NCBI GenBank assembly: GCA_943788425.1
Contig: CALSQF010000011.1
Location: 1-64,000 of the forward strand
Direction: 5' to 3'
Length of the DNA stretch: 64,000 nucleotides
DNA from: an uncultured Planktomarina sp.
GTDB lineage: Bacteria > Pseudomonadota > Alphaproteobacteria > Rhodobacterales > Rhodobacteraceae
Each line of letters begins with the position of its first letter. Position 1 is the stretch's first letter. The notes below the pieces were generated by a model. The model was not told the DNA's origin. It ran no database searches and was given only the letters and a program-made list of their open reading frames with translations. The translations under genes and the position numbers were made by a program. Positions 1-29,899 of the stretch are shown piece after piece.

Positions 1-659
1 AAAAGACATCAAAACTCCTCGAGCCTGACAGCCTCGTTGACAAACTTGTCGCCGCGATCCGCGATTCCATCATTGCGGGCGATCTCGAAGCAGGCGCTCA
101 CATCGGCATCAAGAAGATTGCGGATGAATACGGTGTCAGCATGATCCCGGTCCGCGAGGCCCTTGCCCGTCTGCTCGCATCGCGGCTTGTACGCGCCGAG
201 GCAAATCGTGGCTATTTCGTCGCCTCAAAACCCTCTCGTTCCGATTTTTTCGAATTCGTCGAGGCGCGCGAATTGTTCGAGACCTCCGCCGTTGCGCGCG
301 GCTTCGAAAAGGCCACGCCAGAGCATGTCCGCAAGCTTCGGAAACTGAATGAAAAAATGCGCAAGGTCGCAAAGGCGGGCCGAGCCAACATGATGGTCGA
401 ATGGGGCAATCTGAATGCCGAATTTCACAGCGTTCTGGTTGGCATGGCCGAAAATGCCTACCTGAGTGAGCTCTACGCTGACCTCTCGTTTGGCAATATG
501 CACTTCCAGTTGGTGCGCAACTACCCTGCCGAAATCATAGGGTTGGATTTGCTGGTCGCACAGCATGAAGAGATGATCGACGCGCTTGAGAATGCCGATC
601 AAAGCGGGCTCTTGTCCTGCCTATCGAACCATATTCGAAATCTGACAAAAGCCGATTGA
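1..659 (+). CDS. GntR/FCD-family transcriptional regulator, 5' end outside window
   Basis: The frame is open from base 3, so the start lies upstream of the window; about 218 residues are visible. The N-terminal part is a GntR winged helix (the stretch KKIADEYGVSMIPVREALARL carries the recognition helix and the PVREAL motif). The C-terminal part is a helical FCD ligand-binding domain, as in FadR/VanR-type regulators. Such proteins usually repress a neighbouring catabolic operon until a small carboxylate binds. It lies 110 bp upstream of the FAD dehydrogenase on the same strand and is the only regulator in the cluster, so it is the natural candidate for the AT-rich palindromes at 719, 2197 and 7967. 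That link is inference. The internal ATG at 141 would cut the HTH in half and is not the start. Confidence 0.9.
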   Translation, partial: KTSKLLEPDSLVDKLVAAIRDSIIAGDLEAGAHIGIKKIADEYGVSMIPVREALARLLASRLVRAEANRGYFVASKPSRSDFFEFVEARELFETSAVARGFEKATPEHVRKLRKLNEKMRKVAKAGRANMMVEWGNLNAEFHSVLVGMAENAYLSELYADLSFGNMHFQLVRNYPAEIIGLDLLVAQHEEMIDALENADQSGLLSCLSNHIRNLTKAD

Positions 660-703
660 CGCACAACCCGCCTGCTGGAACACCATCCTTATTGTAATAG
701 ATA

Positions 704-734
704 TTGCAAAATATTTATATATTATATATAATTT
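704..734 (+). promoter_or_regulatory. Promoter with AT-rich palindromic operator-like site
   Basis: TTGCAA (704-709), a 17-bp spacer and TATAAT (727-732) form a good sigma-70-like promoter for the FAD dehydrogenase gene. The 16-mer ATATTATATATAATTT at 719-734 overlaps the -10 and matches the site before the TRAP operon at 15 of 16 positions. A 17-bp odd palindrome, TTATATATTATATATAA, lies at 715-731. The position fits repression by occlusion, probably by the adjacent GntR protein; the protein-site link is inference. Confidence 0.6.
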
Positions 735-769
735 CTTGTACTTGGGATTAATAGTCAGGGATATCGTGC

Positions 770-2140
770 ATGTCTGTGAAAGAGGCGAAAGATCGCATTG
801 CCGAGATCCTCGGTAACAGGCTGGCCGCCACCCGGGCCGTCAGAGCCGAGCACGCCCGAAACGAAGCGCATTTTCCGGAAGCTATGCCCGACGCTGTTGC
901 CTTCGTCAAAACCACGCAGGAAGTTTCGCAGGTCTTGGCGGTCTGCCACGAAGAGGCCTGTCCGGTGACCGCGTGGGCGGCAGGGACTGCGCTGGAAGGT
1001 CAGCATCTACCGACGAGGGGCGGCCTCGTGCTGAATATGATGGCAATGAACGCGGTCAAGGCAGTGAGCCCAGAAGATATGGATGCGGTGGTTCAGCCGG
1101 GTGTGACTCGAGAGCAGCTCAATGAAAACTTGCGCGCGACGGGGTTGTTCTTCTCGGTTGATCCTGGGGCCAATGCGTCCATGGGTGGCATGGCCGCCAC
1201 GCGCGCTTCGGGAACAACGGCGCTGCGCTATGGTACGATGCGTGACAATGTCAGTGCGCTAGAGGTGGTTCTGGCGGATGGACGGATTATTCGCACAGGA
1301 ACCCGAGCTCGCAAGTCATCCGCCGGGTATGATCTGACAGGTGCATTTATTGGATCCGAGGGCACGTTGGGGGTGATCACCCAGCTGACCGTGAAACTGC
1401 ATGGCGTACCCGAAGCGATCTCGGCTGCCTCCTGCGCGTTCGCATCTGTCGCGGATGCTGTGCAAGCGGTCGTGACAACAATCCAGATGGGCATCCCCAT
1501 CGCCCGAATGGAGCTTTTGGATGCGGGGTACATTGAAGCCCTGAACGTACGGTTCGGGCTCCAATTGCCTGACACGCCGCATCTGTTCCTCGAGTTTCAC
1601 GGCTCCGATGATAGCGTGCGCGAACAGGCAGAGACGGTCGGCACGATTGTCACAGACTGTAATGGGACCAACTTTTTCTGGAAAACCAGAGCGGAAGACC
1701 GAAACGCACTCTGGCAGGCACGGCATGGTGCCTATGAGGCTATGGGCGCGATGCATCCCGGTCGTCGATCTGTCGTGACGGATATCTGCGTGCCAATCTC
1801 GCACCTGCCTGACATGATCGAGGCGGCGCGCTCCGATATTGACGGGTCGACCATACCAGGGGCCATCATTGGGCACGTGGGGGACGGGAACTTCCACGCC
1901 CAGCTGATGGTGCAAGACGGCAATATGGAGGACCTGAAGATCGCCAAAAATCTGGCCAACCGCATGGCGCAGCGCGCATTGGACGTGGGCGGCACGATCT
2001 CTGGTGAGCACGGGATCGGACAGGGCAAGCGCGACCTGATGGAAGCAGAACACGGGGCCGCTTGGGACGTGATGGGCGAGATGAAACACATGTTCGACCC
2101 AAGGGGCATTTTGAATCCAGGCAAGCTCATCCGCGATTAA
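770..2140 (+). CDS. FAD-linked D-2-hydroxyacid dehydrogenase (GlcD/D-lactate dehydrogenase family)
   Basis: 456 residues. The N-terminal half is a PCMH-type FAD-binding domain (FAD_binding_4), including the glycine-rich stretch around residues 66-90 and the conserved region around 130-160. The C-terminal half is FAD-oxidase_C, ending with the family signature ISGEHGIGQGKR. Family members oxidise D-lactate, glycolate or other D-2-hydroxyacids and pass electrons to cytochrome c or quinone. The ATG at 770 follows CAGGGA at good spacing. It is the first structural gene downstream of the GntR regulator and has its own promoter. In this context it probably oxidises a 2-hydroxyacid made or released by the oxygenase that follows; the actual substrate is unknown. 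It is shorter than GlcD, and no GlcE or GlcF partner is present. Confidence 0.85.
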   Translation: MSVKEAKDRIAEILGNRLAATRAVRAEHARNEAHFPEAMPDAVAFVKTTQEVSQVLAVCHEEACPVTAWAAGTALEGQHLPTRGGLVLNMMAMNAVKAVSPEDMDAVVQPGVTREQLNENLRATGLFFSVDPGANASMGGMAATRASGTTALRYGTMRDNVSALEVVLADGRIIRTGTRARKSSAGYDLTGAFIGSEGTLGVITQLTVKLHGVPEAISAASCAFASVADAVQAVVTTIQMGIPIARMELLDAGYIEALNVRFGLQLPDTPHLFLEFHGSDDSVREQAETVGTIVTDCNGTNFFWKTRAEDRNALWQARHGAYEAMGAMHPGRRSVVTDICVPISHLPDMIEAARSDIDGSTIPGAIIGHVGDGNFHAQLMVQDGNMEDLKIAKNLANRMAQRALDVGGTISGEHGIGQGKRDLMEAEHGAAWDVMGEMKHMFDPRGILNPGKLIRD

Positions 2141-2185
2141 GGCATCAATCATGCATTTGGTGCACGCAACTGCAGAGATCTGGTG

Positions 2186-2213
2186 TTGACAATTATATAT
2201 TATATAGTATTTT
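2186..2213 (+). promoter_or_regulatory. Promoter with AT-rich operator-like site before the oxygenase operon
   Basis: A perfect -35 TTGACA (2186-2191) is followed by ATATTATATAGTATTT at 2197-2212, which matches the TRAP-operon site at 13 of 16 positions. A -10 is less clear: TATTTT at 2208-2213 gives a 16-bp spacer. The operator would sit in the spacer. A strong Shine-Dalgarno (AGGAGG) precedes the ATG at 2243. Confidence 0.55.
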
Positions 2214-2242
2214 ACTTCCATGTAACGAGACAGGAGGAATTC

Positions 2243-3241
2243 ATGTCAAAGCCAGCGATCGATGCAGATCCATGGGTCCCTCCAAGTCTCGAAGGAGTGC
2301 AGATCGAGCGAAAGAAGCTGAAGGGATTTATGCGCCGCAGCGATACGATCCCCCTGATACGCCTTCTGCTCAGCGTTTTATCAATCAGCTTTTACGGCTG
2401 GCTTTACTACATCTCTTGGGGGACTATTTGGGTTGTTCCGACAGTAATACTCTTCGGCGGAACGATGTCGCTTTTTGCCTATTCGCTCAGCCATGAATGC
2501 GCCCATGGCACGGCGTTCAAATCGCGTTGGCTGAACGAGACGGTTTTCTGGTTCTCGTCCACCTTGTTCGGCCAAGAACCTCTCTATCGCCGGTACAGCC
2601 ATGCCGAACACCACACATATACTTGGTTCTGGGAAAAAGACGCCCAGATGCCTTTCACAATCCGCCAAAAGGTCAACCTGCTGACATATCTGCGCTGGTA
2701 CACGTCGCTGGAATATCATTATCTCTTTATCAAGATCGCGCTGCTGCATGCGTTCGGTAGATTCTCCGCCCGGACCCGCGAGTTCACGCCGGAAACCGAG
2801 CTCTGGCCGATGCAGCGCAACTCGATGATCTTCGTTGGCATCTGGGTCGTCGCTGCGGCAGTCTCGGTCTACTTCCAGTCTATGGCGCTGGTCTGGTTCT
2901 ACGTCATCCCCAAAATCGTCGGAGACATGATCAACATGACCTATGTCGGCACCCAGCATTTCGAGATGGCCGAAGACGATCTAAACCTTGCGCACACCAC
3001 GCGCTCGATCAAGCCGAACTGGTTCATCGATCTCTATTACTGGAACATGTCCTACCACATCGAGCATCACTTTGCCCCGACGGTGCCGTTTCACGCGCTG
3101 CCAAAGTTGAACGAAGAGATCAAGGACAAGCTGCCGGAGCCGCAAGGGGCGATCCCGATCACAATCGATGTGTACAAGGCGATGCGCAACCGGCACCTGA
3201 GCATCGAGAAAGATGCGCTGGAAATGCCCACAAGCCACTAA
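2243..3241 (+). CDS. MocD-like membrane di-iron oxygenase (fatty acid desaturase fold)
   Basis: 332 residues. It has the three histidine clusters of the membrane fatty-acid-desaturase/hydroxylase superfamily: HECAH at 84-88, HAEHH at 120-124 and HIEHH at 272-276. Hydrophobic segments lie around 37-80 and 195-222. These proteins bind two irons and use O2 to hydroxylate, desaturate or dealkylate. A Rieske ferredoxin and an FAD ferredoxin reductase follow directly, the same trio as mocD-mocE-mocF, known from rhizopine (O-methyl-scyllo-inosamine) catabolism in rhizobia. The start at 2243 is fixed by CAGGAGG eight bases upstream; an in-frame ATG at 2183 lies before the promoter. The rest of the rhizopine pathway is not visible here, so an O- or N-dealkylation or hydroxylation of another small acid is more likely. 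Substrate unknown. Confidence 0.8.
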   Translation: MSKPAIDADPWVPPSLEGVQIERKKLKGFMRRSDTIPLIRLLLSVLSISFYGWLYYISWGTIWVVPTVILFGGTMSLFAYSLSHECAHGTAFKSRWLNETVFWFSSTLFGQEPLYRRYSHAEHHTYTWFWEKDAQMPFTIRQKVNLLTYLRWYTSLEYHYLFIKIALLHAFGRFSARTREFTPETELWPMQRNSMIFVGIWVVAAAVSVYFQSMALVWFYVIPKIVGDMINMTYVGTQHFEMAEDDLNLAHTTRSIKPNWFIDLYYWNMSYHIEHHFAPTVPFHALPKLNEEIKDKLPEPQGAIPITIDVYKAMRNRHLSIEKDALEMPTSH

Positions 3242-3262
3242 CTATCAAGACGGGAGATCGGT

Positions 3263-3580
3263 ATGTCGAGCAATTGGGTTCTGGCCTGCGCCGCAAATGA
3301 TGTCGACGAGGAAGATGTGCTGGGCGTTGAGCTCAACGGTCAGAAACTGGCTGTCTACAATACGCCCAAAGGTTTCTTTGCGACCGACGGCATCTGCACC
3401 CATGAGGTCGCGCAACTTGAGGACGGGCTGGTGATCGGCACGGTGATCGAATGCCCACTGCACCAGGGACGCTTTGACGTCACAAACGGCAAAGCCCTCT
3501 CGGCGCCTGTATGCGTTGATTTGAAGACCTACCCAACGAAGGTCGAGGACGGCGATGTCTATATCGACGTCCCAGCCTGA
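3263..3580 (+). CDS. MocE-like Rieske [2Fe-2S] ferredoxin
   Basis: 105 residues, a single Rieske domain. The cluster ligands are Cys45-x-His47 and Cys64-x2-His67, the standard C-x-H...C-x2-H pattern. There is no signal or membrane segment, so it is a soluble electron carrier. The ATG follows GGGAG and lies 21 bp after the oxygenase stop, so the genes are co-transcribed. It most likely ferries electrons from the FAD reductase downstream to the di-iron oxygenase upstream. The family is annotated as MocE or NirD/bphF-like ferredoxin. Confidence 0.87.
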   Translation: MSSNWVLACAANDVDEEDVLGVELNGQKLAVYNTPKGFFATDGICTHEVAQLEDGLVIGTVIECPLHQGRFDVTNGKALSAPVCVDLKTYPTKVEDGDVYIDVPA

Positions 3581-3642
3581 GCGATGTTGGGTTCGCAGAT
3601 GCGCCCGATACCCCGATTTCCAGCTCTTGGACAGCCCTCGAC

Positions 3643-4854
3643 ATGAGACATGTCGCGATTGTCGGCGCTGGTCTCGCGGGCTTTTCCGTCGCGCGCAGAT
3701 TACGTGAACTGGACTATACAGGGGCTATCACGCTTTTTGGCGATGAAGGTGCCCTGCCGTACGATCGACCGCCGCTCTCCAAGGGATCCTTGAAGGCCTC
3801 TGTGGATGCGTCCGGTGCTACCCTGCGCCCATCAGAGTTCTTTGAGGAAAACCAGATCGCTCTTCGTCCAAGCGAGCCTGTTTTGGGCATCGATACGACG
3901 GCGCGAACGTTGCAGCTACGAGGTGAAGCCTTCGCCTTTGACGCACTGGTATTGGCAACTGGCGCCACGCCACGCGCATTGCCCAATGCCATAATCCGCG
4001 GTTTGCACGGCGTCCACGGCCTGCGCACCCTCGCCGATGCACAACGCATTTCGCAAGCTTTCGGAACGGCGCAACACGCTTTGATCGTCGGCGGTGGATA
4101 CATCGGGCTAGAGGTTGCGGCCGCCGCGGCTGGACGCGGGCTTCGCGTGACCCTCATCGAAGCGGGTCCCCGAATTCTGGGGCGCGTCGCCGGACCGCCA
4201 ACAGCCGATGCCATCCGCGCCGCGCACAAGCGTAAGGGTGTCGACATCCGTGAAGGTGTAGGTCTGTCAGCGTTCGTTGGAACTGACCAAGTGAAGGGTG
4301 CAATATTGTCAGATGGCGCGCATGTGGCTGCGGATTGCGTGATCGTCGGAATAGGGATTGATCCGAACGTCACGCTCGCCAAATCAGCGGGGCTGGCGAC
4401 AGAGAACGGCATCCTTGTCGATCCAACCTGCCAGACATCCCAGCCGGGCATTTGGGCCGCCGGGGATTGCGCAGCCTTCCCGATGGCCGATCAGATCACT
4501 CGGCTGGAAAGCGTCGGCAACGCCATCGAGATGGGAGAGGTCGTTGCCGCAAACATCATGGGCCAGTCGCGACCTTATGCACCGACGGCCTGGTTCTGGT
4601 CCGATCAGTTCGACTTGAAGCTGCAGATGGTCGGCCTCAGCCCGGGATACGATCGGATTGTGACCCGTCCTGGCGTAAACCCAGATGCAATATCGCACTG
4701 GTACTACGCAGGCGAAAGACTGCTCAGCGTGGATATAATCAATGAGCCCAAAACCTATATAATCGCCAAACGCCTGATCGAGACGGGCAAATCTCCGCCA
4801 CCTGCACAGATAGCTGATCAATCTGTCAATCTGAAAGTCTTGCTGAAGTCTTGA
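3643..4854 (+). CDS. MocF-like FAD-dependent ferredoxin reductase
   Basis: 403 residues, the normal length for oxygenase-coupled ferredoxin reductases (BphA4/PdR type). An FAD-binding GxGxxG is at residues 8-13, an NAD(P)H-binding GGGYIG at 150-155, the ATG-like LATGATP near 104-110 and a C-terminal dimerisation domain. It transfers electrons from NAD(P)H to the Rieske ferredoxin. It starts 62 bp after the ferredoxin. No clear Shine-Dalgarno precedes the ATG, and the frame is open upstream without a better start. It is the last gene of the operon; the next gene is convergent and ends 46 bp away. Confidence 0.88.
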   Translation: MRHVAIVGAGLAGFSVARRLRELDYTGAITLFGDEGALPYDRPPLSKGSLKASVDASGATLRPSEFFEENQIALRPSEPVLGIDTTARTLQLRGEAFAFDALVLATGATPRALPNAIIRGLHGVHGLRTLADAQRISQAFGTAQHALIVGGGYIGLEVAAAAAGRGLRVTLIEAGPRILGRVAGPPTADAIRAAHKRKGVDIREGVGLSAFVGTDQVKGAILSDGAHVAADCVIVGIGIDPNVTLAKSAGLATENGILVDPTCQTSQPGIWAAGDCAAFPMADQITRLESVGNAIEMGEVVAANIMGQSRPYAPTAWFWSDQFDLKLQMVGLSPGYDRIVTRPGVNPDAISHWYYAGERLLSVDIINEPKTYIIAKRLIETGKSPPPAQIADQSVNLKVLLKS

Positions 4855-4899
4855 AGCGCGTCCATTCTGATTGGATCGACCTGCCGAAGATGCCCCAGA

Positions 4900-6219
4900 C
4901 TATCGGAAGCCTGTAATCTGCGAAGGCAGATAAAGCGCGATCTGCGGGAAGATCAAAATCAGCACAAGCGTCAACAACTGCAGCCCGATAAATGGAATGA
5001 CGCCACGATACATGTCAGCCAAAGTGATTTCCGGTGGACTAATGGCGCGCAGATAGAAAATCGCTGGCGCCATCGGCGGCGTCAAATAGCTGGTCTGAAT
5101 CATCACCAGAAAGAGGATGCAGAACCACACCGGATCGAAGTCCAGTGACGTGATGATCGGCATCGAGATGGGGATCATCACCAAGACGACCGACACCAGA
5201 TCCAGCGCGAAGCCCGAGATGAAGGCGATAAAGAGGATCAATAGCAATGTATGCCACGGGGTCAGGTTTGCTGCGTCCAACAATGCCCGCACATCGCCAA
5301 CGCCCCCCGACGCGATGAAGACACCGGCAAACATGCTGCCCGCAAGCAGGATGGTCAGCATCATCACCGTGATCCGCACGGTCTTTTGCGCCGCATCGCC
5401 CAGCACCTGAATGCTCAATCGCCTGTTCATCAGGGTCAGCAATGTAGCGCCAACAGCGCCACAGGCTGCCGCTTCTGTCGTCGTCGCAAGGCCCATCAGG
5501 ATTGTTCCAAGAACTGTGAAGATCAGAAAAAGCGGGGGTAGCACGGCAAGAACAGTCATCCGGATCATCGTCAACAAAGGCACTTCCGGGCCTTTATCGG
5601 CCATTTCATGAGGGGCAAGCGCCGGATTCAACGCACATCTGATTACGATGTAGAGAACAAAAAGCATCGCCATCAGAAGACCTGGGAAAAGCAGACCGGC
5701 AAAAAGATCCCCCACAGACACATCCGCGATCGGTGCCAGAATGACCACCAATACTGACGGCGGGATCACAGTGCCAAGCGATCCGCCTGCGCAGATTGTG
5801 CCCGCGATCAGCGACTTGTTGTATCCGTACTTCATCATGATGGGGATCGCCAAAAGCCCGATGACGGTTTCCGTGGCACCCACCACCCCGCTGGCCGCAG
5901 CAAAGATTACTCCCAGCAAAACCGCCCCAACGGCAAGGCCTCCAGGCAGGCGACGGGTCCAGAGATAGAGCGCCTCGAACAGTCTCTCTGCAATTCCAGC
6001 GCGTTCAAGCATGCACCCCATGAACACAAAAAGCGGGACCGCGGCGAGGATGTAGTTTCCGCCTACATCCTGAACTTTGGAGACGAACTGAAACACCGCC
6101 TTGTCGCCGAAGCGGATGAACCCGAACACCAACGAGACGGCAAAGAGCGAATAGGCGACCGGTATCCCGACCAGCAGCAACACCAGCAAGGCCGGAAACA
6201 TGAGAAGTGCGATATCCAT
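4900..6219 (-). CDS. TRAP transporter large permease (DctM/TRAP-T family)
   Basis: 439 residues from the ATG at 6219. This start overlaps the small-permease stop as TGATG, and the long frame upstream is not used. About 12 hydrophobic helices and the conserved glycine-rich stretch GTICAGGSLGTVIPPS, typical of DctM, are visible. It forms the Na+-coupled channel of a tripartite carboxylate transporter. It is the last gene of a dctP-dctQ-dctM operon that runs towards the oxygenase operon. Confidence 0.9.
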   Translation of the reverse strand: MDIALLMFPALLVLLLVGIPVAYSLFAVSLVFGFIRFGDKAVFQFVSKVQDVGGNYILAAVPLFVFMGCMLERAGIAERLFEALYLWTRRLPGGLAVGAVLLGVIFAAASGVVGATETVIGLLAIPIMMKYGYNKSLIAGTICAGGSLGTVIPPSVLVVILAPIADVSVGDLFAGLLFPGLLMAMLFVLYIVIRCALNPALAPHEMADKGPEVPLLTMIRMTVLAVLPPLFLIFTVLGTILMGLATTTEAAACGAVGATLLTLMNRRLSIQVLGDAAQKTVRITVMMLTILLAGSMFAGVFIASGGVGDVRALLDAANLTPWHTLLLILFIAFISGFALDLVSVVLVMIPISMPIITSLDFDPVWFCILFLVMIQTSYLTPPMAPAIFYLRAISPPEITLADMYRGVIPFIGLQLLTLVLILIFPQIALYLPSQITGFR

Positions 6220-6734
6220 CAGGAGGTCCGCTTGGCCACACGGCCGGTTATGAGTGTGCAGAGCGCATTCAGGATGTCGGCGACAATCTGAGCGGCAAAG
6301 AGCATGAAGCCCAGCCAGAACGTCAACCGCGCAGGCCAAACCACCGGGTTCCAGATGCTCTGACCCGATCGCTCGCCGCTGTTCAAGGCTCGCTCGAAGT
6401 AGTCCCAAAGGCCAAAACACAGCCAGATGACAAGTGGTGCGATCAGCAAGAGGCCAATCAGATCCACAAGCGCCTTCTTACGTGCCGAAAACCGATGATA
6501 GAACAGATCGACTCGCACGTGGCCATCGGTCTGGCTGACATAGGCAATGCCCAGCAGGAACAGTGCCCCCATCTGCATATAGGCTGCTTCGTAAGCCCAG
6601 ATCGTGGGCCGCGCGAAGACATATCGGGAAACGACCTCCCACAGCATGGACCCGGCTAGCGGGACGATGAGCCAGGCAACCACCTTGCCGGTGCCGCAAG
6701 TTACAAGATTGATCAGGCGAACGATGGTGAGCAT
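6219..6734 (-). CDS. TRAP transporter small permease (DctQ family)
   Basis: 171 residues with four predicted membrane helices (about 15-33, 48-68, 88-110 and 130-152), as in DctQ proteins. It pairs with the large membrane subunit encoded just downstream and contacts the periplasmic binding protein. Its stop overlaps the dctM start by one base, so translation is probably coupled. It lies 101 bp after the dctP gene. Confidence 0.86.
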   Translation of the reverse strand: MLTIVRLINLVTCGTGKVVAWLIVPLAGSMLWEVVSRYVFARPTIWAYEAAYMQMGALFLLGIAYVSQTDGHVRVDLFYHRFSARKKALVDLIGLLLIAPLVIWLCFGLWDYFERALNSGERSGQSIWNPVVWPARLTFWLGFMLFAAQIVADILNALCTLITGRVAKRTS

Positions 6735-6835
6735 ATATGCAGGATCCCGGACGGCCGGCTTGAGATATCAGATACAGGCAGAGATCAAGGGTGCCGATGA
6801 AAATCGGCGAGACCCCTGTCCCAAAACCCTCTTGG

Positions 6836-7882
6836 TCACTGTGAGGGCTTGCTATCGCGATACTCATGCGCGTTGACCCACCGGGCTTGGAAGGCGCGCT
6901 GGTCTTCCAGAACTCGGGTGAACCAGCCTCCAAGCTCTGCGGCATTCGCATCTTCCCACTCAGTGGTCAGTTCCGCAACTTTCGCCAGAACCTCGTCATC
7001 GACGGTCACAAATTCTGAACCAGCCTCCTCGAAAAATGCGTAGGCATCGGCATCCGCGTTCCCCGTCCGCTCATACACGCGGTGCGCCTGAATATAGGCC
7101 GCATGTTCGATCATGTTCTGGTTGTGTTCGCTGATCTGATCCCAGGCTTCGGTATTGAAGCTGCATTCCATTACGACGGTCGATTGGTGAAAACCGGGAA
7201 GAACGATGTAGGGCGCAACTTTATGGAAGCCCGAAGACTGGTTGAGTGACAGCGCCGACCATTCCACGGCGTCCACGACACCGCGCTCGAGCGCCTGATA
7301 GACCTCGGCACCCGGCGTCACAACGGTCGCGACACCCAGACCCGCGGCAATTTCAGACCATGCGCCAGCGGTTCTCAGTTTGAGCCCGTCGAAATCGCCG
7401 ACGCTTTGGACGCGTCTGCTTGAGAACATCCCGCCTTCCCGCGGAATGTAGGCACAGGGGAATGCGACGAGTTCGGCGGTTTCCATCCGGTACTCGCGCC
7501 ACATCTCTGCACCACCACCCTGGCTGAGCCAATGCTGCATCTGATCTGCGGTCAACCCGCCGGGACGCCCGCCGAACAGAACGGTTGTCTTGTCCGCCCC
7601 GTATTCGTAGCCAATGAAGGTGTGACCGGCTTCGGCGACACCGTTTCTGACTGTTTCACCGACCTTTAACGGGCTTCCCAAAGTGCCCGCGGTGAAGACT
7701 TCGATCGTCACCTCGCCATCGGTCATTTCACCCACCAGATCAGCAAAGCCTTGCGCCCACTCCAGCGGTGGACCGCCGCCCCAAGAAGTCGCCATGCTGA
7801 GCCTTTGCTCAGCGAATACACTCCCTGCAGTCAGAATGGATGCCGACAGAGCGAATGCCGTTAACTTATTGAATTTTATCAC
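6836..7882 (-). CDS. TRAP transporter periplasmic substrate-binding protein (DctP family)
   Basis: 348 residues. I chose the GTG at 7882: GGGAG lies six bases upstream and the following residues form a clean signal peptide (KFNKLTAFALSASI, cut near SVFA-EQ). The longer frame from 7936 would hide the signal. The mature protein reads as a DctP/TAXI-like binding protein; the stretch VVTPGAEVYQALERGVVDAV is typical of DctP proteins that bind 2-keto or 2-hydroxy carboxylates. It should deliver the cluster's substrate to the permease pair. It is the first gene of its operon, behind a palindromic operator-like site. Confidence 0.88.
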   Translation of the reverse strand: MIKFNKLTAFALSASILTAGSVFAEQRLSMATSWGGGPPLEWAQGFADLVGEMTDGEVTIEVFTAGTLGSPLKVGETVRNGVAEAGHTFIGYEYGADKTTVLFGGRPGGLTADQMQHWLSQGGGAEMWREYRMETAELVAFPCAYIPREGGMFSSRRVQSVGDFDGLKLRTAGAWSEIAAGLGVATVVTPGAEVYQALERGVVDAVEWSALSLNQSSGFHKVAPYIVLPGFHQSTVVMECSFNTEAWDQISEHNQNMIEHAAYIQAHRVYERTGNADADAYAFFEEAGSEFVTVDDEVLAKVAELTTEWEDANAAELGGWFTRVLEDQRAFQARWVNAHEYRDSKPSQ

Positions 7883-7966: not shown

Positions 7967-7997
7967 ATATTATATATAATATGCAGATTGCTTTTAA
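7967..7997 (-). promoter_or_regulatory. TRAP operon promoter with perfect 16-bp palindrome
   Basis: ATATTATATATAATAT at 7967-7982 is a perfect palindrome. On the minus strand it contains a TATAAT -10 (7974-7969), with TTAAAA (7997-7992) 17 bp upstream as a plausible -35. Close relatives of the same 16-mer are found at 719-734 and 2197-2212, which ties the TRAP operon to the same regulator as the catabolic genes. Confidence 0.6.
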
Positions 7998-8853: not shown

Positions 8854-8943
8854 TGGCGGAGGAACAGGGATTCGAACCCTGGGAGGACTTTCACCCTCGT
8901 CGGTTTTCAAGACCGGTGCATTCGACCACTCTGCCACTCCTCC
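8854..8943 (-). tRNA. tRNA-Ser (anticodon UGA)
   Basis: 90 nt including an encoded CCA. The acceptor stem GGAGGAG pairs with the 3' TTCCTCC. The T arm (GGTTCGAATCC type) is clear, and the long variable arm is typical of class II serine tRNAs. The anticodon loop CTTGAAA gives anticodon TGA, reading UCA/UCG. A tandem 12-bp repeat and AT-rich DNA lie just beyond its 3' end, a common integration position. Confidence 0.95.
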
Positions 8944-28237: not shown

Positions 28238-29899
28238 CTATGTGCTGTGATCGCGCCAGCGATTGGCTATGGGATAGCGCCGATCCAACCAAAAGGCCCG
28301 CGGAGATAGGCGCGTCCCCGGCGCAGATTGGAAGCGCTTATACTCGCTCACATAGATCAAATGCTCGATTTTCTTGACTGTTTTGCGCTCAAAACCGACC
28401 GCCACGCAATCGGCCACTGAGGCCTCATCATCCACCAACATCTGCAAGATACCGTCAAGCACCGGATAGGGTGGCAGGCTGTCTTCGTCTTTTTGATCAG
28501 CGCGCAACTCTGCGCTGGGAGCCTTGTCGATAATGCGGGGATCAATAACCACGCCGTCCGGTCCCCTCATCCAGTCACGGTGATGCGCATTGCGCCAGCG
28601 GCAGATGTCAAACACCCGCGTTTTATACAGATCCTTAATCGGATTATATCCTCCCGCCATATCCCCATAGATCGTCGCATAGCCAACCGCCACTTCTGAC
28701 TTATTGCCCGTTGTCAACAGCATATGCCCCAACTTGTTGGACAGGGACATCAACAACAGGCCGCGCAAGCGAGACTGGAGATTCTCCTCCGTTGTATCCG
28801 CAGGCCGGCCGGCAAAAATCGGCGCCAAACTCTCAGTGATCGCCGCCTGCGGCCCGGTGATGGGCAAGGTTTGCAAGGGCGCGCCCAGCGCTTGCGCCAC
28901 CGAGACAGCGTCCTGAAGCGATGCTTGGCTTGTGAATTGCGAGGGCAACATGACGCAATGCACATTCTGCGGCCCCAGCGCATCAGCAGCAATTGTGGCA
29001 ACAATGGCAGAATCGATCCCACCCGACAGCCCCAAGACCGCCGATGAAAAACCGGTTTTGCGCATATAATCGCGCAAAGACAGAACCATCGCATAGTAGT
29101 CTTGTTCAAAAGCATCCGGCCAATGGGCCAGAGTGCCTGTGCCGGCCTGCCAGCCTTGATCGGTCAGCTCAAAATCCACATGCGCAATGCAATCTTCAAA
29201 CAACGGCAAAGACAGAGCCAAAGCACCACCGGGATTGAGTACGAATGATCCGCCATCAAAGACCTGATCATCCTGGCCACCAACCATATTCACATAGACC
29301 AATGGCAGCCCGGTTTCGACCACCCGCGCGACCATATGCGCCATGCGCACATCCATTTTGCCCCGCGCGAAGGGCGAACCGTTCGGCACAAAAAGCACTT
29401 CTGCACCAGATTCGGCCAAGGCCTCGGGTACATCCGCATGCCAGGCATCTTCGCAAATCGGCGTACCAATCCGCAGGTTGCCTACCCGGTAAGGCCCAGA
29501 GACATCCGCCGATTGATAGAGGCGTTTTTCGTCGAACACATCATCATTTGGCAAAATATGCTTTTTAATTACAGTTTGGATACGGCCGCCAGCAAGAATA
29601 TAATATGCATTATAAAGACCGGTCTGATCACGAAACGGCCCACCGATCCCCATGGCCGGCCCCTCAACACAAGATTGGGCCAGGCCCTGAATTTGCGCTA
29701 TCGTATCGCGGGTAAACGCTGGTTTAAGCACCAGATCTTGCACTTGATAGCCGGTGACAAACATCTCTGGCAACATAACCATATCAGCGCCCGCGCGTTT
29801 GGCCACTTTCCAAGCCTCAAGCGCTTGCGCCGCATTGCCAGCAAGATCACCCACTGTTGCGTTGAGCTGCGCCATGGTTAACCTAAATCTCTGTGTCAT
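28238..29899 (-). CDS. nadE: Glutamine-dependent NAD+ synthetase
   Basis: 553 residues. N-terminal nitrilase-like amidase domain with the Glu-Lys-Cys triad (LPEMFVTGY, KKHILPND, CEDAWHAD), then an ammonia-dependent NAD synthase domain with the PP-loop GLSGGIDSA. It makes NAD from deamido-NAD using glutamine. It is on the same strand as gltX but 67 bp upstream of it, so co-transcription is possible. Confidence 0.95.
   Translation of the reverse strand: MTQRFRLTMAQLNATVGDLAGNAAQALEAWKVAKRAGADMVMLPEMFVTGYQVQDLVLKPAFTRDTIAQIQGLAQSCVEGPAMGIGGPFRDQTGLYNAYYILAGGRIQTVIKKHILPNDDVFDEKRLYQSADVSGPYRVGNLRIGTPICEDAWHADVPEALAESGAEVLFVPNGSPFARGKMDVRMAHMVARVVETGLPLVYVNMVGGQDDQVFDGGSFVLNPGGALALSLPLFEDCIAHVDFELTDQGWQAGTGTLAHWPDAFEQDYYAMVLSLRDYMRKTGFSSAVLGLSGGIDSAIVATIAADALGPQNVHCVMLPSQFTSQASLQDAVSVAQALGAPLQTLPITGPQAAITESLAPIFAGRPADTTEENLQSRLRGLLLMSLSNKLGHMLLTTGNKSEVAVGYATIYGDMAGGYNPIKDLYKTRVFDICRWRNAHHRDWMRGPDGVVIDPRIIDKAPSAELRADQKDEDSLPPYPVLDGILQMLVDDEASVADCVAVGFERKTVKKIEHLIYVSEYKRFQSAPGTRLSPRAFWLDRRYPIANRWRDHST

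What the first reader, a model, noticed from the sequence alone, without database searches (positions are those of the whole stretch)
660..7882. MocDEF-like oxygenase fused into a GntR-GlcD-TRAP catabolic cluster for an unknown acid
Seen: a membrane di-iron oxygenase with three His boxes, a Rieske ferredoxin and an FAD reductase form one operon, beside a GlcD-type dehydrogenase, a GntR regulator and a full TRAP transporter. Known: mocD/E/F demethylate rhizopine in rhizobia; TRAP systems mostly carry carboxylates. Inference: the transporter imports a carboxylate, the oxygenase hydroxylates or dealkylates it, and the FAD enzyme oxidises the 2-hydroxyacid formed. No inositol genes are seen, so the substrate is probably not rhizopine. 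This is the best candidate in the window for an undescribed pathway.
Basis: partly seen in the sequence, partly recalled or inferred. Interest (0 to 1): 0.75.

Follow-up and report, generated by a model that had tools for sequence, protein, structure and literature searches.

The report
Demethylation gene cluster with repurposed PanB
A bacterial gene cluster seems to import a methylated hydroxy acid and strip off its methyl groups, and a near-identical relative suggests that the cluster also includes an altered copy of a vitamin-making enzyme that may catch the removed carbon on folate.

Summary
The genes are there as described. A contig of another bin (L003, 99.2% identical over 6,936 bp) continues leftward with a PanB homologue, a DmdA-family demethylase and part of a 2-oxoacid:ferredoxin oxidoreductase. 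A 16-bp palindrome lies before dctP (0 mismatches), glcD (1), mocD (3) and, in L003, between dmdA and panB (1). In this 2.54-Mb genome its only two sites with up to 2 mismatches are in the cluster, though the reversed-pattern control also found two. Transporter and catabolic genes therefore look like one GntR regulon.

PanB homologues recur beside membrane di-iron oxygenases: 10 of 16 MocD-selected family loci, 0 of 3 MocD-selected plasmid loci, 14 of 14 PanB-selected plasmid loci. All 32 non-pathway PanBs aligned have Glu at E. coli position 179 and lack Glu114; all 8 pathway-type ones have Val179 and Glu114. I read them as folate one-carbon acceptors serving oxidative demethylases. The cluster would then demethylate a 2-hydroxy/2-oxo monocarboxylate; 4-dimethylsulfonio-2-hydroxybutyrate is my best single guess. 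Nothing was tested at the bench.

The parts
3..659 (+). GntR-family (FCD) regulator, 5' end cut by the contig edge
   Evidence: Pfam FCD 67.2 and GntR 52.1 bits; complete in L003 3668-4345
719..734 (.). palindromic operator-like site before glcD, 1 mismatch to ATATTATATATAATAT
   Evidence: same site in L003 at 4405
770..2140 (+). FAD-linked D-2-hydroxyacid dehydrogenase (GlcD/LDHD type)
   Evidence: FAD_binding_4 and FAD-oxidase_C; best solved relative mitochondrial D-lactate dehydrogenase 8jdc
2197..2212 (.). weaker operator-like site before mocD, 3 mismatches
   Evidence: perfect copy before mocD in TMED22 L004 4811-4826
2243..3241 (+). MocD-like membrane di-iron oxygenase (FA_desaturase fold)
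   Evidence: PF00487 113.8 bits; three His boxes; own clade with TMED22 protein
3263..3580 (+). Rieske ferredoxin (MocE-like)
   Evidence: Rieske 72 bits; CxH and CxxH; below MocE-family cut-off
3643..4854 (+). FAD ferredoxin reductase (MocF-like)
   Evidence: Pyr_redox_2 and Reductase_C
4900..6213 (-). TRAP large permease DctM
   Evidence: DctM 231.2 bits; passes TIGR00786
6219..6734 (-). TRAP small permease DctQ
   Evidence: DctQ 84.6 bits
6836..7882 (-). TRAP solute receptor DctP
   Evidence: DctP 127 bits; nearest solved relatives 5cm6, 2hzk, 4pet, 2zzv, 7ug8
7967..7982 (.). perfect 16-bp palindrome before dctP, ATATTATATATAATAT

Best explanation
A GntR-controlled catabolic regulon for a methylated 2-hydroxy (or 2-oxo) monocarboxylic acid. 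Steps: TRAP import; methyl groups removed oxidatively by the MocD/E/F-type oxygenase chain and by THF-dependent transfer through the DmdA-family enzyme; the carbon from the oxidative step passed to tetrahydrofolate by a PanB-derived enzyme that no longer makes ketopantoate; the D-2-hydroxyacid oxidised by the GlcD/LDHD-type enzyme to a 2-oxoacid; the 2-oxoacid turned into an acyl-CoA by the IorAB-type oxidoreductase. Shown: the genes, their order in L003, the shared palindrome, the recurrent PanB-oxygenase neighbourhood and the changed PanB residues. Inferred: every reaction, the direction of C1 flow, and the substrate. DMSHB (4-dimethylsulfonio-2-hydroxybutyrate) fits DmdA, GlcD and IorAB but leaves the oxygenase step unexplained.
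For: L003 carries oxidoreductase-dmdA, then divergent panB-gntR, then glcD, mocDEF and TRAP, 99.2% identical to the window over 6,936 bp; oxidoreductase beside gntR recurs in L004. Palindrome: 5 matches (3 places) at <=3 mismatches in the window against 0.03 expected, 5 in L003 against 0.01, 4 in L004 against 0.04; genome-wide at <=2 mismatches only the glcD and dctP sites. PanB within the fetched stretch in 10 of 16 MocD-selected family loci, 5 of 7 genome-contig loci, 14 of 14 PanB-selected plasmid loci: 9 with a fatty-acid-desaturase and 5 with a sterol-desaturase type oxygenase. purU follows in 2 of these 14, folD also in one. In G205 a 72%-identical PanB and a 65%-identical DmdA flank a VanA-type Rieske oxygenase. 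PanB residues: 32 of 32 non-pathway copies Glu179 and no Glu114, 8 of 8 pathway copies Val179 and Glu114; His136 and Glu181 in 40 of 40. L003 DmdA passes the DMSP-demethylase cut-off, 451 against 410.
Against: The window's own assembly has no PanB at E<=0.001 and its best DmdA relative is 37%; the left half is known only from L003. The reversed-pattern control found as many genome-wide hits (2) as the operator in G000, and 3 against 5 in TMED22, where one of the 5 lies outside the cluster. L004 has no PanB, GlcD, TRAP or DmdA on its contig and no DmdA relative in its genome at E<=1e-20; its PanB-like gene is unlinked and without the palindrome nearby. The three MocD-selected plasmid loci, the window MocD's best plasmid hits, have no PanB; two of them sit among guanidino/agmatinase genes. 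L003 PanB passes the canonical panB cut-off (252.7 against 207.55). In the rhizopine-type locus the MocR passes (751.3 against 650) but the tested solute receptor does not (138 against 420). The cluster DmdAs have Thr/Val where 7 of 9 comparison rows have Lys, so DMSP itself may not be the substrate.
Confidence: 0.5

Rival explanations
1. C-C version: the oxygenase hydroxylates a side-chain methyl, GlcD makes the 2-oxoacid, and PanB run backwards removes the hydroxymethyl as methylene-THF (as from ketopantoate), leaving a 2-oxoacid for IorAB.
For: GlcD, PanB and IorAB line up as consecutive 2-oxoacid steps; L003-type PanB keeps Asp45 and Lys112.
Against: Asp84 is Ser and Glu114 is Gln in L003 and L065; PanB also sits with oxygenases in inositol- and rhizopine-type loci where no 2-oxoacid is evident; DmdA is unexplained.
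Confidence: 0.18
2. The oxygenase hydroxylates the substrate without demethylation, as in guanidino-acid clusters; PanB and DmdA are neighbours from another pathway.
For: The window MocD's best plasmid relatives (43-44%) lie near a 5-guanidino-2-oxopentanoate decarboxylase and agmatinase without PanB; GntB arginine hydroxylase is among its NCBIfam matches (45.4 bits).
Against: The palindrome joins the panB/dmdA promoter to those of glcD and mocD; its sister clade in the MocD tree is mostly PanB-linked (9 of 13 rows).
Confidence: 0.18
3. PanB is simply the pantothenate-pathway enzyme, lying by chance beside the cluster.
For: It passes TIGR00222; no other PanB is seen in G000 or G605.
Against: Changed residues; no panC beside it; only 37% identical to the panC-linked PanB of the same genus; 14 of 20 genus genomes show no PanB at all.
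Confidence: 0.07
4. TRAP is an independent neighbour with an unrelated cargo.
For: Opposite strand; absent from L004.
Against: Perfect copy of the palindrome before dctP.
Confidence: 0.07

Closest known systems
Rhizopine mocDEF (rhizobia)
   Same: FA_desaturase-fold oxygenase, Rieske ferredoxin and FAD reductase in one operon; a rhizopine-MocR locus on pRLa11 has MocD-E-F-PanB-PurU
   Different: Different MocD clade, GntR-FCD not MocR, TRAP not sugar ABC, DmdA/GlcD/IorAB partners, MocE below the family cut-off
DMSP demethylase DmdA and the dmdBCD route
   Same: L003 DmdA passes NF009133 and is 48% identical to the P. inhibens DmdA that lies beside dmdD, an AMP-binding protein and an acyl-CoA dehydrogenase
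   Different: No dmdB/C/D neighbours; Lys of SGYSKQGG replaced by Thr/Val
PanB, ketopantoate hydroxymethyltransferase
   Same: Whole-length PF02548 match; passes TIGR00222
   Different: Asp84 to Ser, Glu114 to Gln, Val179 to Glu; no panC neighbour
VanA-type Rieske O-demethylases
   Same: In G205 the same PanB-DmdA pair flanks a VanA_C oxygenase
   Different: Window oxygenase is a membrane di-iron protein

Membership tests
Rhizopine Moc system | MocE family ferredoxin (TIGR02377 cut-off 136.15) | tested here: not met
   122.7 bits
Rhizopine Moc system | MocD in the rhizobial MocD clade | tested here: not met
   window and TMED22 form their own clade, 100/100
Rhizopine Moc system | MocR regulator | tested here: not met
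   regulator is GntR-FCD; rhizopine_MocR not among its NCBIfam matches
Pathway PanB | curated model score | tested here: met
   252.7 against 207.55
Pathway PanB | Asp45, Asp84, Glu114 (metal ligands, recalled from the E. coli structure) | tested here: not met
   D, S, Q in L003
Pathway PanB | panC neighbour | tested here: not met
   none in L003
DmdA | NF009133 cut-off 410 | tested here: met
   451
DmdA | DMSP as substrate | not testable with these tools
   site change Lys to Thr seen
Glycolate oxidase GlcD | TIGR00387 cut-off 567.9 | tested here: not met
   331.4
TRAP transporter | DctP, DctQ and DctM together | tested here: met
Indolepyruvate:ferredoxin oxidoreductase family | full-length match over cut-off | tested here: inconclusive
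   L003 copy runs off the contig (699.7 against 952); the L004 copy passes (1555.3 against 816)

The most novel reading that the evidence does not exclude
A branch of the PanB fold has become a folate-dependent one-carbon acceptor that takes the hydroxymethyl or formaldehyde made by oxidative demethylases (MocD-type, sterol-desaturase-type and VanA-type), marked by Glu179 and loss of Glu114. It would be an enzymatic entry of formaldehyde-level carbon into tetrahydrofolate, found from rhizopine-type loci to this marine-type cluster.
Probability: 0.45. Interest if true: 0.85.

Novelty: new variant of a known kind. Interest (0 to 1): 0.62.

Why it matters
Methylene-THF formation from formaldehyde is usually said to be spontaneous (recalled). 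If these PanB relatives do it, many genes annotated as pantothenate biosynthesis are misnamed, and oxidative demethylation of methylated osmolytes and inositols gets a direct link to one-carbon metabolism. The palindrome gives a handle on the substrate: what releases GntR from it is probably the cargo of the transporter. If the substrate is DMSHB, a new branch of marine sulfur cycling would open.

Tried and rejected
Rhizopine itself: rejected on clade, regulator and transporter. Chimera of L003: rejected because oxidoreductase beside gntR recurs in L004. PanB as housekeeping gene: see rivals. A structure search by sequence for MocD gave no solved relative at E<=0.1. No structure was predicted and no fold search was run. 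The operator was sought in G205 (L065: none) and near the lone TMED22 PanB (one 3-mismatch site about 8.5 kb away). A wide search for close MocD relatives found none beyond the window's own in 397 other genomes of a phylum sample at E<=1e-60 and only a 39% one among 19 others of the genus. Homarine was considered; the search listing showed no gene set to compare.

Literature, ten searches: none of the listings showed a paper on PanB with demethylases; two searches returned no paper. Seen as passages: PMC10107442 (no panB, purU or demethyl in its main text), PMC5395565, PMC11306096, PMC10949508 (its panB is the pantothenate gene). Abstract, start of the introduction and section list: PMC12478193. 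The library lacks most subscription papers.

Rows dropped: of 52 PanB frames found, 33 were aligned with 3 fetched pathway PanBs; the 19 left out were repeats of the same genes, one near-copy (L007) and a partial one (L061). Four rows were added.
Full report
What is there. The window starts at the first base of contig C11 of a 2.54-Mb, 19-contig assembly. At its left end lie a GntR-FCD regulator, an FAD-linked D-2-hydroxyacid dehydrogenase, a MocD-like membrane di-iron oxygenase, a Rieske ferredoxin and an FAD reductase on the + strand, and a complete TRAP transporter on the - strand. His boxes and the Rieske motif are intact. A tRNA-Ser gene (8854-8943) and apparent housekeeping genes follow.

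What the contig edge hid. A scan of 84,980 species genomes found seven relatives of the oxygenase. One, L003, is 99.2% identical to the window over 6,936 bp and reaches 3.7 kb further left. There lie a PanB homologue, a DmdA-family demethylase and part of an indolepyruvate-type 2-oxoacid:ferredoxin oxidoreductase. A second, L004 (Betaproteobacteria MAG TMED22, 71% MocD), has the oxidoreductase beside gntR and mocDEF, but no GlcD, TRAP, PanB or DmdA on its 12.4 kb. The window's own assembly shows no PanB and no DmdA closer than 37%; I take this as a gap at the contig edge, which is inference.

One regulon. The palindrome ATATTATATATAATAT stands before dctP (perfect), glcD (1 mismatch) and mocD (3), in L003 between dmdA and panB (1), and in L004 before mocD (perfect) and between the oxidoreductase and gntR (2). 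In the window 5 matches at 3 places compare with 0.03 expected. In the whole genome only the glcD and dctP sites appear at up to 2 mismatches; the control pattern read backwards also has two hits, so the motif's rarity alone is weak, and what counts is that both real hits fall in this cluster. In TMED22, 5 hits against 3 control hits; four of the five are on the cluster contig. That GntR binds it is inference.

PanB with oxygenases. In the family, 16 MocD relatives other than the window's own passed E<=1e-40 in 198 genomes; 10 have PanB in the fetched stretch, often in the order MocD-PanB-MocE. Of the seven genome-contig loci five have it. On plasmids, three MocD-selected loci have none, while all 14 PanB-selected loci that I opened have a di-iron oxygenase next to PanB: nine of fatty-acid-desaturase type, five of sterol-desaturase type (one tested: FA_hydroxylase). 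The 14 were chosen by me from long hit lists and are not a random sample. Two carry purU, one of these also folD; two carry iolG. One lies in a locus whose MocR passes the rhizopine model, though its tested solute receptor does not. In G205, of the same genus, a 72%-identical PanB and a 65%-identical DmdA flank a VanA-type Rieske oxygenase. A DmdA-like gene (36%, below the DmdA cut-off) follows MocD-PanB-MocE in L036.

PanB residues. Forty PanB proteins were aligned and recounted. All 8 pathway-type copies have Asp45, Asp84, Lys112, Glu114 and Val179; seven are next to panC, and the eighth (TMED22) was not checked for panC. All 32 others have Glu179 and lack Glu114 (29 gaps, 3 Gln); 29 lack Asp84, 29 lack Lys112, 23 lack Asp45. 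His136 and Glu181 are in all 40. Thirty of the 32 are near an oxygenase gene; the exceptions are L066 (a 4.35-kb contig, neighbours not identified) and L090 (no oxygenase seen). For Methylobacterium L104 the oxygenase gene is about 1.2 kb upstream with small genes between. That Asp45, Asp84 and Glu114 are metal ligands and Glu181 the base is recalled. In the tree the pathway PanBs are one group (100/99); L003 and L065 pair (100/99) between them and the 29 remote copies, and the Methylobacterium copy is nearest the pathway group (97/91). Whether Glu179 arose once or more is open.

DmdA, GlcD, DctP. L003 DmdA passes the DMSP-demethylase model (451 against 410) and is 48% identical to P. inhibens DmdA, which lies beside dmdD. 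It has Thr, and L065 Val, where 7 of 9 comparison rows have Lys. GlcD's best solved relative is mitochondrial D-lactate dehydrogenase. DctP's solved relatives include entries named ketoacid-binding and lactate-binding; other ligands are recalled.

Mechanism. Import of a methylated 2-hydroxy/2-oxo monocarboxylate; demethylation by oxygenase plus PanB-like C1 acceptor and by DmdA; oxidation by GlcD; conversion to an acyl-CoA by IorAB. DMSHB would give MTHB, MTOB and methylthiopropionyl-CoA (intermediates named in passages of PMC5395565 and PMC11306096; this catabolic route is my inference). It does not explain the oxygenase, so I give it about 0.15.

Distribution and novelty. At E<=1e-50 the genus sample holds the oxygenase only in the window's genome and, at 39%, in G045 (2 of 20). 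The window's MocD clade is separate from the rhizobial one. The searches listed under Tried and rejected found no paper on PanB with demethylases; that is absence in an open-access library only.

Noticed in passing
window 8854-8943: tRNA-Ser gene directly beyond the cluster, which is rare in its genus: possibly an island insertion site.
   Followed up: no
G000:C16:7395-7673: Only a 103-aa open frame matches PanC in the window's genome, and G211 has a similar 99-aa frame; 14 of 20 genus genomes show no PanC match: possible pantothenate auxotrophy.
   Followed up: partly
L032 and L033, 9335-14552: MocD-MocE beside a 2-oxoacid decarboxylase annotated for guanidino acids and an M24 peptidase, without PanB: possibly a separate hydroxylase pathway.
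   Followed up: partly
L076 and L079: MocD-E-F-PanB-IolG with a TIM-barrel protein and sugar ABC genes: candidate O-methyl-inositol catabolism.
   Followed up: no
L006 and L008: A dihydroxy-acid-dehydratase-type gene (identified in L008; same cluster family in L006) just before MocD, and a TRAP permease after MocE: another acid pathway of this kind.
   Followed up: no
window 29599-29614: A second AT-rich palindrome, TATAATATGCATTATA, far from the cluster.
   Followed up: no
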